DNA of 64,000 nucleotides from Myotis daubentonii (taxonomy: Eukaryota > Chordata > Mammalia > Chiroptera > Vespertilionidae), in NCBI RefSeq assembly GCF_963259705.1, contig NC_081842.1:34995796-35059795 (forward strand). Reading direction: 5' to 3'. Below, piece after piece: positions 15,461 to 60,079 of the stretch. The first letter of the stretch is position 1. Each line of letters begins with the position of its first letter. Position numbers and translations under genes: made by a program. The notes below the pieces were generated by a model, which was given only the letters and a program-made list of their open reading frames with translations, made no database searches and was not told the DNA's origin.

Positions 15461-15615
15461 TGGAGCCATTCTGGCTTTTATTTTGTTACTAGAGGCACGG
15501 TGGATGGATTCGTGCACCAGTGGGGTACCTTGGCCTGGCCTGCACCCTCTTGCAATCTGGGACCTCTCAGGTGATGTCGGACTGCTGGTTTTGGTCTGAT
15601 CACCGCAGCCCAGGC

Positions 15616-15638
15616 TGATCCATGCACTGGGCCTCTAG
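15616..15638 (+). mobile_element. Internal Helitron 3' terminus, opposite strand
   Basis: 'gctgatccatgcactgggcc' followed by TCTAG and then T is a plus-strand Helitron 3' end lying inside a minus-strand Helitron. It could be a transduced end or a remnant of an earlier insertion. Confidence 0.75.
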
Positions 15639-15640
15639 TA

Positions 15641-15735
15641 TGCATGTAAGATCTTTGGTGAATCTCTTCCCACCCTCCCCCCTCCCCTCTTCCCTCTGAG
15701 ATTCATCAGTCTATTCCATGTTTCCATGCCTATGC
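15641..15735 (-). repeat. L1 3' UTR fragment carried by the Helitron
   Basis: The motif order 'gatctttggtgaatctcttc', 'ccctctgagattcatcagtc' and 'ccatgtttccatgcctatg' matches, with divergence, the complement of the bat L1 3' UTR seen complete at 22760-23015 and 46620-46860. The L1 3' terminus and poly-A are missing, so this is not an ordinary tailed L1 insertion. Confidence 0.75.
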
Positions 15736-16052
15736 ATTGAGTGTCTTCCCCCTGATGGTCAGTGTGTGTCATAGCTACTGGTCGAACAGTCAAATGGTTG
15801 AACAGTCAGTCACTTAGGTTTTTATATATATATAGATTCATTTCAGAGAGAGGAAGGGAAAGGGAGAGAGAGAAAGGAACATCAATGATGAGAGAAAAAC
15901 CATAGATTGCATGCCTCCTACATGCCACCCACTGGGAACTGAGCCAACAACCAGGGCACGTGACCTGCCTGGGAATCAAACCTTGACCTCCTGGTTCATG
16001 AGTTGATGCTCAACCACTGAACCACACTGACTGGGCACCATTCTGGCTTTTA

Positions 16053-22754: not shown

Positions 22755-23015
22755 GTATTTATTTATTTAATTTATTTATTTTTAAATCTTTATTGCTGAA
22801 AGTATTACATACGTTCCCCCCCACACACTTTGACCCCTTCTAGCCTGTCCTTGCCCTCCGCCCAGGCCCCCAGGCCTTCAACCCCCTAATGTCTGTGTTC
22901 ATGAGTTATGCATATATGCATACAAGTTCTTTGGTTGACTTCTTCCTACCCACCCACACACTCTCACCTTCCCCCTGAGATTCCACAGTCTGTCCATGGT
23001 CCTATGTCTCTGCCA
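22755..23015 (-). repeat. Bat L1 3' UTR, antisense, with tail
   Basis: The plus strand begins with a T-rich tail complement and 'tctttattgctgaaagtatt'. It continues 'aatgtctgtgttcatgag', 'gcatatatgcatacaagttc' and 'tgagattccacagtctgtcc'. Reverse-complemented, it is collinear with the 3' UTR of the bat L1 at 46620-46868 in this window. It is a short 5'-truncated copy. Confidence 0.9.
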
Positions 23016-23555
23016 CTAAATAGCTGTCTGCCATTTGTTTAGTCACAACTTTCTGAACAGCAGTATCTTCGTCTATGCAAGAATAGGTTGCATTATTTTT
23101 TAATAATGTTTTTCCTACCAGTGCTATCTTGAGTTTCAATATTTTAAGTTGGAGAAGAACAGCTTTCAAAGAAAAAAGAAAGCTGTGATGAAAAAGGTGG
23201 AAACATAGATGTTCTTGAAGACATGACAATGGATCTTGACTGATGGAGATGAGTTGGGCGCACTCTTTAAGTAAAGGGAACAACATGAGCCAGCTGCATA
23301 TGTAAAAAATAAAATAAAATCATAACAAAGAGAACAATATCTACATCTGTTGGGTAAATGTCTGAAATTAAAATCTGCTCAGGAAACTGGATGGAAGTGG
23401 CAGGCTTAAAGTAGATAGAACTGTCTTTGACCAGTATTAGGTGTGAAAAGAAAGAATTCTTTGGGTCAGCCCTTTGCTGCATAGCCAGCTGCATAGGGAA
23501 AGTGAAAGTATGGGAGTGGGAAAGGCCGTCCAGTGCAGGAGTTGACATCCTAGCA

Positions 23556-44426: not shown

Positions 44427-46869
44427 TGCATCTAGCAATATATTAAAAAGATCATATACTATGACTAAGTGGGATTTATTCCAGGGATTCAAGGCTGGTA
44501 CAATATTCACAAATCAATAAACGTGATACATCACATAAACAAATTGAAAGACAAAAATCACATGATCATGTCAATAGATGTAGAAAAAGCATCCTTCAAA
44601 ATCCAACACCCATTTTTTAGAAAAACTCTCAGCAAAGTGGGACTAAAAGGAGCATACCTCAACATGATAAAGGCCAAATGTGACAAACCTACATCCAACT
44701 TCATACTCAACGGGCAAAAAGTAAGACCATTTCCCCTAAGAAAAGGAACAAGACAGGGATGCCCACTTTCACCACCCCTATTCAACATAGTACTGGAAGT
44801 TCTAGACACAGCAATGAGACCAAAAAAAAGAAAAAAGAAAAAGAAATAAAAGGCATCCAAATTGGGAAGGAGGACGTAAAACTCATTATTCACAGATGAC
44901 ATGATATTGTACATAGAAAACCCTAAAGACTCCACCAAAAAACTACTAGATTTAATAAATGAATTTGGCAATGTTGCAGTATACAAAATCAACATCTAAA
45001 AATCAAAGGCTTTTTTATACACCAATAATGAATTCACAGAAAGAGAAGCTAAACAAACAATCCCATTTACCATTGCAATAACAAATTAATATACTTAAGA
45101 ATAAACTTAACCAAAGAGGCAAAAGAACTGTACTCAGAAAACTACAGGACATTGAAAAAAGAGATAGGAGATATAAACAAGTGGAAGAATATAACATGTT
45201 CATGCATTGGTAGAATCAACATCATTAGAATGTCCACCATGCTACCCAAGGCAATCTACAGATTCAATGCAATCCCCATTAAAATACCAATGGCATATTT
45301 CCCAGAGCTAGAACAAATACTCCAAAAATTTACATAGAATCAAAAAGACCCAAGTAGCTGCAGCAATTTTGAGAAAGAAAAACAAAGTTGGAGGAATCAC
45401 AATACCAGATTTCAAGTTATACTACAAAGCCACCGTAATCAAAATAGCCTGGTACTAGCACAAGAACAGGCATATAGATCAATGGAACAGAACAGAGAAC
45501 CCAGAAATTGACCCAAGTTATTATTCTCAAATAATATTTGATAAAGGAGGGAAGAGGATACAATGGAGTCAAGAGAGTCTCTTCAATAATTGGTGTTGGG
45601 AAAATAGGATAGGTACATCCAAAAAAAAAAATGAAACTAGACCACCAAATTACACCGTACACAAGAATAAACTCAAAAGGATAAAAGACTTAATGTAAGT
45701 TGTGAAACCATGAAAATCCTAGAAGAAACCATAGGCAGAAAAATATCAGACAACTCTCATGGCAATATGTTTACAGATACATCTCCTAGGGCAAAGGAAA
45801 CCAAGGAGAAAATAAACAAAAGGGACTACATCAAAATAAAAAGCTTCTGACACCAAAAGCAACCATCAACAAAATGAAAAGTGAGCCCACTGTATGGGAG
45901 AACATATTTGACAATGATACATCTGATAAAGGGTTAATATCCAAAATATATAAGGAACTCATACAACTTAACAGAAAGAAGACAAACAATCCAATTAAAA
46001 ATGGGCAAAAAAACCCCTATATAGACACTTCTCCAAAGAGAACATACAAATGGCCAAGAGACATATGAAAAAATGCTCAAAGTCACTAATCATCCGAGAG
46101 ATGCAAATCAAAACGACAATGAGGTACCATCTCACACCTGTCAGAATGACTATCATCAACAAGTGTTGGCGAGGATGTGGAGAAAAGGGAACCCTAGTAC
46201 ACTGTTGATGGGAATGTAGACTTGTGCAACCATTATGGAAAATAGTATGGAGTTTCCTCAAAAAATTAAATATGTAACTGCCATTTGACTCAGTGATCCC
46301 ACTTCTAGTAATATATCCTAAGAAACTTGAAGCACCAATCATAAAGAATATATGCACCTCTAGGTTCATAACAGCACACATTATAATAGCTAAGATTTGG
46401 AAACAGCTCAAGTGTCCATCAGTAGATGAGTGGATGAAAAGCTGTGGTACATTTATACCATGGAATGCTATGCAGCAGTAAAAAATAAGAATATCTTACC
46501 CTTTGAGACAACGTGGAGGGGCCTGGAGAATATCATGCTACCAGTCAGAGAAAGACAAGTATCACATGCTAGCACTCATATGTGGAATATAAGTAACAAA
46601 ATAAACTGATGAATGGAGTGGATCCAGAGACATGGAAGTATGGAACACTGTGGAATCTCAGAGGGAAGGCAGGGGAGGGTGGGTGGGTGGGATGTAATCA
46701 ACCAAAGACCTTGTATGCATATATGCCTAACTCATGGACACAGACAATAGGGTGCTTACGGCCTGGGGCTGGGAGGCAGGGGCAGGCTGGAAAGGGTCAA
46801 TGGGGAATAAAAGGGGGTCAATGGAGAATGAAAGTATGTAATACTTGCAGCAATAAAGAATGATTAAAA
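44427..46869 (+). mobile_element. Bat L1, 5' truncated, nested in old L1
   Basis: The 2.44-kb insertion has a perfect 15-bp target duplication 'aagagtagaatggta' (44412-44426 and 46870-46884) and a short A-rich tail. It starts in the ORF2 reverse transcriptase region ('ctaagtgggatttattcc'), continues through a [10 protein letters not shown] motif, an altered F(T)DDM motif and the ORF2 C-terminus, and ends with the bat L1 3' UTR ('gcatatatgcctaactcatg', 'cttgcagcaataaagaatg'). ORF1, endonuclease and 5' UTR are absent. Confidence 0.95.
44469..46480 (+). pseudogene. L1 ORF2 (reverse transcriptase) remnant
   Basis: This would encode the L1 ORF2 polyprotein from within the reverse transcriptase domain to its C-terminus. 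Visible motifs: 'GFIPGIQGW', '[14 protein letters not shown]' (fingers/palm), '[20 protein letters not shown]' and, in another frame, a TDDM variant of the catalytic FADD box at about 44898. Downstream blocks (45152-45337, 45874-46068, 46293-46481) lie in changing frames. Frameshifts, stops and an A-rich expansion at 44823-44846 break the frame, and the endonuclease half is missing, so no active enzyme can result. Confidence 0.9.
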
Positions 46870-52330: not shown

Positions 52331-52335
52331 GGGCC

Positions 52336-52441
52336 TAAGTCAGCAGGCGGACATCCCCCAAGAGGTCCTGGGCTGCAAGAGGTCACAGGCCTGGCTAAGG
52401 GATCCCTCCTAATGCATGAATGTCATGCACCAGGCCTCTGA
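52336..52441 (+). mobile_element. Helitron 3' end fragment
   Basis: Plus-strand remnant with the 'ggcctggctaagggatccct' block, terminal hairpin region 'gcatgaatgtcatgcacc' and terminus CTGA (a CTRR variant) followed by T. The 5' portion is missing. Confidence 0.75.
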
Positions 52442-59406: not shown

Positions 59407-59675
59407 TCCTATCCAATAAAAGCCTAATATGCTAAGTGTCCAACCAGTCATTCGACCGTTTGACCAGTCACTATGACATGCACTGACCAACAGGGGGCAG
59501 ACGCTTTAACCAGTAGGTTAGCTTGCTGCTGGGGCCAGCTGACCGGACTGGTTAAGATGTACCGGACACAATCCGGGACCCAGCGGGGGATGTTGGAGAG
59601 CCGGTTTTGGCCCGAACCCTGCAGGCCAGGCTGAGGGACCCCACCAGTGCACCAGTCGGTGCTTCGGGCCTCTAG
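59407..59675 (+). mobile_element. Helitron (HeliBat-type), first of a tandem pair
   Basis: Starts A|TCCTATCCAATAAAAGCC and runs through 'aatatgctaagtgtccaac', 'gacatgcactgaccaaca' and 'ggttagcttgctgctggg' to hairpin 'tgcaccagtcggtgc' and terminus CTAG. It has complete termini and is 269 bp long. The 5' half is highly similar to the next copy. Confidence 0.93.
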
Positions 59676-59678
59676 GCC

Positions 59679-59926
59679 TCTATAATAAAAGCCTAATATA
59701 CTAAGTGTCCAAACGTTCGACCGTTCAACCAGTCGCTATGACGTGCACTGACCACCATGGGGCAGACGCTCTGATCAGTAGGTTAGCTTGCTGCTGGGTC
59801 TAGCCATTTGGACACAGCCGTTTGAGACTAGCTGGACACACCCTGGACGAATCTGTGCACCGCGCCGATTTTGGCCCAATCCCCACAGGCCAGGCTGAGG
59901 GATCCCACTGGTGCATGGTCCTCTAG
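59679..59926 (+). mobile_element. Helitron (HeliBat-type), second of a tandem pair
   Basis: Begins TCTATAATAAAAGCCTAATA three bases after the previous CTAG, then 'ctaagtgtccaaacgttcga', 'gacgtgcactgaccaccatg' and 'ggttagcttgctgctggg'. It ends 'ggtgcatggtcctCTAG'|T. The 3' hairpin is shortened. Confidence 0.92.
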
Positions 59927-60079
59927 TAGAAATATAAAATCAAATAAATTAGTAAAATAATAACAAATTTATGTTTTATTTATCTCTAAAAAAGTATTTC
60001 CTAACACCATTTTCAAATGATAGAACAAACTGAGCAGTAAAAAGTAAGTGACTGCAAAAATCAAAATGTCTGATACATA

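What the first reader, a model, noticed from the sequence alone, without database searches (positions are those of the whole stretch)
15466..16052. Nested Helitron inside a Ves SINE, with a trapped L1 UTR and a second Helitron end
A perfect 15-bp duplication (15466-15480, 16038-16052) encloses a Ves SINE split by a Helitron (15489-15836). The Helitron contains an opposite-strand Helitron 3' end (CTAG at 15635-15638) and an L1 3' UTR piece with no tail. The order of events can be read directly: SINE first, chimeric Helitron later. The Helitron either arrived already chimeric or was remodelled in place. Two outward-facing 3' ends in one element is unusual, because rolling-circle elements normally have one 5' and one 3' end.
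Basis: partly seen in the sequence, partly recalled or inferred. Interest (0 to 1): 0.8.

Follow-up and report, generated by a model that had tools for sequence, protein, structure and literature searches.

The report
Chimeric bat Helitron with flipping end
This is one damaged copy of a family of several thousand jumping DNA elements in a bat-like genome, each built with a scrap of another mobile element and two mirror-image tail ends whose in-between segment occurs in either orientation, which leaves a readable trace of how such elements are copied and shuffled.

Summary
A Ves-type SINE with a perfect 15-bp duplication carries, in its 3' tail, a complete Helitron (15836 down to 15489, minus strand, A|TC...CTAG|T). 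Inside it are an L1 3'-UTR piece and an opposite-strand Helitron 3' end.

The L1|internal-CTAG junction occurs 4,698 times in the host genome (24-mer, up to 3 mismatches; control 0). Of 20 copies picked by that junction alone, 19 also have the Helitron 5' part plus the L1 piece. The internal end abuts L1 at the A|T site expected for an antisense Helitron insertion.

Two outward-facing 3' ends are thus a family trait; the two arms agree at 54 of 55 consensus positions. This copy lost 21 bp of the internal hairpin.

Not in the finding: the 61-bp segment between the arms exists in both orientations (18:7 among 25 classified of 32 junction-picked copies). Orientation is unlinked to two subfamily markers that are linked to each other, which implies at least two inversions. 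Template switching between the arms is the likeliest cause (inferred). An apparent excess of internal-hairpin deletions was my own ascertainment artefact.

The parts
15466..15480 (.). target-site duplication of the SINE, left copy
   Evidence: perfect 15-bp direct repeat
16038..16052 (.). target-site duplication of the SINE, right copy
   Evidence: perfect 15-bp direct repeat
15837..16037 (-). Ves-like SINE, head to start of the A-rich tail
   Evidence: similar to about a dozen other stretches of the window
15481..15488 (-). rest of the SINE tail beyond the Helitron
   Evidence: joined flanks continue the tail of two Ves paralogues
15489..15836 (-). whole non-autonomous chimeric Helitron, A|TC ... 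CTAG|T
   Evidence: recurs as a unit
15733..15836 (-). Helitron 5' part, similar to the 5' parts of other Helitrons of the window (near 59416, 59681, 55537)
15639..15732 (-). L1 3'-UTR piece, sense on the Helitron strand, no tail
   Evidence: matches L1 3'-UTR copies at 46628-46721 and 22915-23009 and L058
15605..15638 (+). internal, opposite-facing Helitron 3' end (CTAG at 15635-15638); 34 of 55 consensus bp left, hairpin broken
   Evidence: inverted repeat; 21-bp deletion against family consensus
15544..15604 (-). 61-bp middle segment between the two arms, orientation o1 in this copy
15489..15543 (-). terminal Helitron 3' end (55 bp, CTAG at the end)

Best explanation
The element is one copy of a non-autonomous, chimeric, Helibat-like Helitron family: 5' Helitron part, 94-bp L1 3'-UTR piece, inverted 3' arm, 61-bp middle, forward 3' arm. 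Origin: (1) A Helitron inserted antisense into an L1 3' UTR at an A|T site, TATGCATA|TATGCATA (junction shown, event inferred). (2) A Helitron 5' end in the opposite orientation became joined to the L1 piece, first at the longer junction J+, later shortened by 13 bp to J- (both forms shown, order inferred). (3) Rolling-circle transposition started at that 5' end, ran through the L1 piece and the reversed Helitron end, and terminated at a second copy of the same 3' arm, which came from fold-back copying of the inverted end or from a sister Helitron (inferred). (4) The unit then amplified as a block (shown). Because the two 3' ends are near-identical inverted arms, the segment between them has been inverted at least twice during the family's history (inferred from marker combinations). 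The likeliest cause is polymerase template switching between the arms, which also keeps arms alike, acting in source elements or during replicative transposition (inferred). In this window one such copy landed in the tail of an older Ves SINE; the 21 bp of the internal hairpin were lost in it or in its source. Mobility must have come from an autonomous Helibat-type transposase in trans (established knowledge of the family); I saw no sign of a function today.
For: Recurrence as a block: 40 of 40 scored places of 7,725 first-look candidates with the whole unit and 40 of 40 of 5,077 with the 5'+L1 part. The L1|CTAG junction occurs 2,312 + 2,386 times, reversed-pattern control 0. 19 of 20 copies picked only by that exact junction carry the 5' part and L1 piece. 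Canonical insertion into L1: L1 relatives read TATGCATA|TATGCAT (22800-23250; L058); two family copies, L038 and L114, sit in other L1s at this same kind of site. Inverted arms: 54 of 55 consensus positions identical over the 76 copies, of 127 given, that had both arms; internal and terminal arms have diverged equally (5.7% and 6.3% CpG-masked, 26 of 30 copies of set 2). Inversion: among 32 copies picked by junction alone (sets 4+5) the strict check gives 18 o1, 9 o2, 5 excluded; I set aside two of the nine, L130 and L162, whose internal arm looks like another Helitron family's, leaving 7. A looser score gave 21:9 with 2 undetermined. Without these two, junction type is linked to the middle's sequence (sets 4+6, [[2,19],[4,2]], p=0.011) but not to its orientation ([[14,7],[4,2]], p=1.0). 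Over all sets both middle alleles occur in both orientations (CAG 57 o1/16 o2, CTC 22 o1/11 o2), and the main lineages J+/CTC and J-/CAG each contain o1 and o2 copies. The 13-bp junction difference and the two-base CAG/CTC difference are each hard to regain, so at least two inversions are needed. Mechanism precedents: hairpin as terminator and read-through capture in Helraiser (PMC4778049, passages and section 12); template switching homogenises arms and inverts spacers of short inverted repeats in yeast (PMC8604942, abstract and passages).
Against: Trees do not by themselves show repeated inversion: a single o2 clade is not rejected (AU p=0.132 on 5'+L1; 0.223 with arms), although at least 11 and 9 changes are needed on the free trees. 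In the samples not picked by orientation (sets 4-6) all four J-/CAG copies are o1; the eight J-/CAG/o2 copies come from set 3, which was picked with an o2 query. Linkage of junction type and middle allele is incomplete and weakens when L130 is dropped (p 0.004 to 0.011). In a 77-copy test one CpG column reached p=4e-4 with orientation, of 336 columns. No excess of variants shared by the two arms of one copy was found (98 against 101.5 permuted), so arm-arm exchange after insertion is not supported. The fold-back step has no direct witness; no ancestral locus was found. Both orientations of the middle also occur in other Helitrons, so exchange with them is possible.
Confidence: 0.7

Rival explanations
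1. The second 3' end comes from a separate Helitron of the same subfamily (nested or neighbouring insertion), not from fold-back copying; a composite element with surplus termini then became mobile, as proposed for Fusarium Helitrons.
For: Composite Helitrons with surplus termini by self-insertion are proposed in PMC5148889 (passages). Some Helitrons here sit directly behind another Helitron's 3' end. L098 has a whole extra antisense Helitron placed exactly at the internal CTAG|T.
Against: Arms identical at 54 of 55 consensus positions would need a very close sister element; later homogenisation could also give this.
Confidence: 0.4
2. The o2 copies arose by exchange of the middle (and part of an arm) with other Helitron families that carry the middle in the other orientation, not by inversion.
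For: Other Helitrons in the same genome carry the middle next to their 3' end in one or the other orientation.
Against: Within o2 copies the middle's allele still tends to follow the family's own junction type ([[4,8],[8,2]], p=0.043; most J- rows from set 3), as it does within o1 ([[1,13],[35,4]], p=4e-8; most J- rows from set 1).
Confidence: 0.25
3. One inversion only: o2 is a single subfamily, and the marker combinations come from recurrent 13-bp deletion or recurrent change at the CAG/CTC site.
For: AU tests do not reject one o2 clade; in sets 4-6 the four J-/CAG copies are all o1.
Against: Needs the same 13-bp deletion or a two-base change to recur; among the 37 copies of sets 3+4 no column is clearly tied to orientation (best p 0.03 of 299 columns).
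Confidence: 0.15
4. One reading: the Helitron was remodelled at this locus.
For: None found.
Against: The same chimera occurs in many places.
Confidence: 0.01

Closest known systems
Helibat (Helitron1-type) non-autonomous families of vesper bats (HelibatN series; Helraiser as reconstructed autonomous relative), PMC4778049 (passages)
   Different: two outward-facing 3' ends as near-identical inverted arms; the captured piece is L1 3' UTR; the middle segment occurs in both orientations
Composite Helitrons with surplus termini, Fusarium oxysporum FoHeli (PMC5148889, passages)
   Same: chimeric elements with more than one terminus of a kind, proposed to move as a unit
   Different: those resemble Helitron2 and are modelled with two 5' termini by self-insertion; here two 3' termini in opposite orientation, in thousands of junctions
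Helraiser 3'-end bypass and de novo 3' ends (PMC4778049, section 12)
   Same: read-through past an end and use of another 3' end downstream
   Different: here the element read through an inverted Helitron end and kept it
Spacer inversion by template switching between inverted repeats in yeast (PMC8604942, abstract and passages)
   Same: inverted arms made alike, spacer inverted repeatedly
   Different: arms of 7-16 bp and inversions of 2-5 bp there; here 55-bp arms and a 61-bp spacer inside a transposon family
Ves SINE of vesper bats (name from recall and from the titles PMC4436864, PMC4494050 in a search listing)
   Same: tRNA-like head (recalled), pyrimidine-rich 3' part, A-rich tail, 15-bp duplication
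   Different: nothing unusual apart from carrying the Helitron in its tail

Membership tests
Helibat-like Helitron | 5'-TC terminus | tested here: met
   window A|TCTATATA; family consensus TCTATATATATAAAAGCC
Helibat-like Helitron | CTAG-3' terminus | tested here: met
   31 of 40 aligned copies end in CTAG exactly, window included
Helibat-like Helitron | insertion between A and T without duplication | tested here: met
   window: A at 15837 and T at 15488 in Helitron orientation; T follows in 36 of 40 copies, while the 5' base is blurred by TA repeats (A in 19 of 40 by alignment column)
Helibat-like Helitron | hairpin shortly before the 3' end | tested here: met
   GTGCACGAATCCATGCAC-type imperfect palindrome before CTAG in most terminal arms of 40 copies
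Helibat-like Helitron | only one 5' and one 3' end | tested here: not met
   a second, inverted 3' end inside: without a deletion of 4 bp or more in 27 of the 30 copies newly read from a search that ignored it, and at least 52 of 55 bp aligned in 32 of all 40 copies of that search
Helibat-like Helitron | mobilised by RepHel transposase | not testable with these tools
   348-bp element; a transposase must act in trans
Named Repbase/Dfam Helitron family | match to a published consensus | not testable with these tools
   no repeat library is available here
Ves SINE | target-site duplication, A-rich tail, similar dispersed copies | tested here: met
L1 3' UTR | similar to 3' UTRs that end in a polyadenylation signal on the same strand | tested here: met
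   L058:3862-3955 (83%) lies upstream of AATAAA on the same strand

The most novel reading that the evidence does not exclude
Helitron replicative transposition itself drives template switching between the two opposed 3' ends, so that the orientation of the segment between them is re-drawn as the family spreads; thousands of copies then form a natural record of strand switching on the peeled-off Helitron strand, and near-identical bipolar 3' ends are maintained by that switching.
Probability: 0.25. Interest if true: 0.6.

Novelty: new variant of a known kind. Interest (0 to 1): 0.42.

Why it matters
Chimeric Helitrons are known, but a high-copy family with two outward-facing, near-identical 3' ends and a segment found in both orientations gives a natural read-out of events that are hard to see in the laboratory: reading through a 3' end, making a new one, and switching template while an end is copied. 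It also shows one route by which Helitrons pick up other mobile DNA, through insertion at an A|T site in an L1 3' UTR.

Tried and rejected
Hairpin-loss idea: in the first 40 copies the internal arm had 30 deletions of 4 bp or more and the terminal arm 1, which looked like loss of an internal terminator. The query, the window copy, itself lacks that hairpin. Among the 40 places of the search with the 5'+L1 part, 8 have an incomplete internal arm (six of them from the ten shared with the first set) and 8 an incomplete terminal arm; in set 4 it is 3 and 10 of 20 (at most 51 of 55 bp aligned). So the excess was ascertainment and the idea is dropped.

Progenitor locus: three places seemed to have L1 on both sides of the unit. 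Read in full, L114 is an ordinary copy inserted into another L1, and L105 and L115 have L1 on one side only. No progenitor was found.

Post-insertion gene conversion between arms: not supported. Trees: inconclusive. Single-strand fold of part of one copy's 3' unit with flank: unremarkable, z -0.92. Viral-contig scan for the junction: 0. The genome-wide o1 pattern count did not complete; the o2 pattern gave 85, of which 12 were printed and 4 of these look by eye like other Helitron types, so no ratio can be taken from patterns. Thomas 2014 and Pritham 2007 are not held. Literature searches. In their listings, and in the passages I read of five papers (PMC4778049, PMC4971623, PMC5148889, PMC5876387, PMC8604942), I saw no report of opposed 3' ends or an invertible segment in a Helitron; the library lacks most subscription papers.

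Dropped rows: L104, L109, L112 from the trees (and L098 from the longer one); L112 and L127 from the association test; L116 and L117 are the loci of L068 and L080 and were left out; L094 was replaced by its longer stretch L098; 13 of 139 copies were excluded by the strict check (2, 2, 0, 3, 2, 4 by set; named); L130 and L162 passed it but I set them aside, and repeats the tables without them. After that repeat I lowered the best explanation from 0.72 to 0.70 and raised the exchange rival from 0.22 to 0.25, because the linkage p-value rose.

Full report
What is in the window. A perfect 15-bp duplication (15466-15480, 16038-16052) flanks a Ves-like SINE on the minus strand. In its tail sits a Helitron running from 15836 to 15489 on the minus strand, with A before TC and T after CTAG. 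Skipping the Helitron restores a normal Ves tail. In Helitron orientation the element consists of a 5' part (15836-15733), an L1 3'-UTR piece in sense (15732-15639), an inverted Helitron 3' end (CTAG at 15638-15635; 34 bp left), a middle segment (15604-15544) and the true 3' end (15543-15489). The names Ves, Helibat and L1 rest on recall and on papers; the similarities are.

Recurrence. The 348-bp unit found 40 of 40 scored places over at least about 80% of its length (7,725 first-look candidates), one of them the window itself. The 5'+L1 part found 40 of 40 (5,077 candidates). The junction GATCTTATATGCATA|CTAGAGGCC with up to three mismatches occurs 4,698 times, control 0; some of these carry another Helitron's end there (L094/L098; L130). 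Twenty copies taken at intervals from the exact matches listed on one contig were read: 19 carry the Helitron 5' part and L1 piece, L127 does not. The chimera is therefore a dispersed family, and the window copy arrived as such.

Junctions. L1 relatives read TATGCATA|TATGCAT, so CTAG|TATGCATA is the A|T junction of a Helitron inserted antisense into L1. Family copies L038 and L114 lie at the same kind of site in other L1s. The 5' junction exists in two forms: short (J-) and 13 bp longer (J+, 773 matches at up to 3 mismatches, control 0). J+ retains GGAGC of the normal Helitron 5' part (compare L055) and is probably the older form.

Two outward 3' ends. Of 30 newly read copies from the search that ignored the arms, 27 have the internal end without a deletion of 4 bp or more; L073 and L082 have deletions and L094 has another Helitron's end. 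Over all 40 places of that search, 8 have an incomplete internal and 8 an incomplete terminal arm. Over 76 copies with both arms, of 127 given, the two consensus arms agree at 54 of 55 positions, the difference being a CpG site, and arms of one copy share no more variants than arms of different copies (98 against 101.5 by permutation; non-CpG 23 against 19.1, reached in 220 of 2000). So the arms were alike in the source elements, and no exchange after insertion is visible. An earlier impression that the internal hairpin is preferentially deleted (30 to 1) came from using the damaged window copy as query.

The middle segment occurs in both orientations. First seen in 2 of 30 copies (L068, L080). 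A search with L080 brought further copies with L1, arm, inverted middle and arm in one piece (read). In the junction-picked sample of 32 the strict check gives 18 o1, 9 o2 and 5 excluded; a looser score gives 21, 9 and 2. I set aside two of the nine, L130 and L162, whose internal arm looks like another family's, leaving 7. Among 20 J+ picked copies the strict check gives 10 o1, 6 o2, 4 excluded. With L130 and L162 left out, junction type in sets 4+6 is linked to the allele of the middle ([[2,19],[4,2]], p=0.011) but not to its orientation ([[14,7],[4,2]], p=1.0); over all sets both alleles occur in both orientations (57/16 and 22/11). By the four-gamete argument this needs at least two inversions or exchange with other Helitrons. 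Within o2 copies the allele still tends to follow junction type (p=0.043), which favours inversion.

Limits of that argument. Sets 1 and 3 were picked by similarity to an o1 and an o2 copy, so only sets 4-6 bear on proportions; in these the four J-/CAG copies are all o1 and the two J-/CTC copies both o2, and the J-/CAG/o2 copies (eight) come from set 3. The existence of all combinations does not depend on how they were picked, but their frequency is poorly known. Orientation has no clear marker column in 37 copies of sets 3+4 (best p 0.03 of 299), while in 77 copies one CpG column reached p=4e-4 of 336. Trees of 57 and 56 rows do not reject one o2 clade (AU p 0.132 and 0.223).

How it works. 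Helraiser experiments show that the 3' hairpin ends transposition, can be bypassed, and that other ends downstream are then used (PMC4778049, passages and section 12). That is a sufficient route to a chimera of this kind. Near-identity of the arms suggests fold-back copying of the inverted end, or a very close sister element, followed by homogenisation. Template switching between inverted repeats both homogenises arms and inverts the spacer in yeast (PMC8604942, passages). I take this as the likeliest cause, acting in source elements or on the peeled-off strand that is thought to be copied during Helraiser transposition (PMC5876387, passages). This step is inferred.

Novelty. Chimeric Helitrons and read-through are known, and surplus termini have been proposed. 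Opposed near-identical 3' ends with an invertible segment in a high-copy Helitron family were not seen in the listings of my searches or in the passages I read of five papers; a Repbase or Dfam entry may exist. I rate it a new variant of a known kind.

Noticed in passing
window 59408-59927: Two Helitrons head to tail, the second starting directly behind the CTAG of the first. In the first family sample 5 of 40 copies by a strict pattern, about 10 by eye, start directly behind another Helitron's 3' end; this looks more than random insertion would give, but I did not compute it.
   Followed up: partly
L098:282-475: A whole extra antisense Helitron inserted exactly at the internal CTAG|T of a family copy, so the internal end can serve as a landing site like a true 3' end.
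   Followed up: partly
L1 3' UTR site TATGCATA|TATGCATA (L038, L114; places): Two family copies sit at this site in other L1s, and other Helitron 3' ends stand next to TATGCATA at some places (independent L1 insertions or insertions at the internal junction of family copies; not told apart). Possibly an insertion hotspot.
   Followed up: partly
window 52334-52439 against 59569-59675: Non-chimeric Helitrons in the same genome carry the same middle segment beside their 3' end in opposite orientations.
   Followed up: partly
L090 and L083: Family copies in which the unit breaks off and hAT-like ends (CAGGGGTGGGCAAAC, CAGTGGTCGGCAAAC; label recalled) lie beyond, directly at the break in L090 and further downstream in L083.
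   Followed up: no
3' flanks of family copies: Many insertion sites read T, then about six bases, then ATAA by eye, a possible target preference beyond A|T.
   Followed up: no
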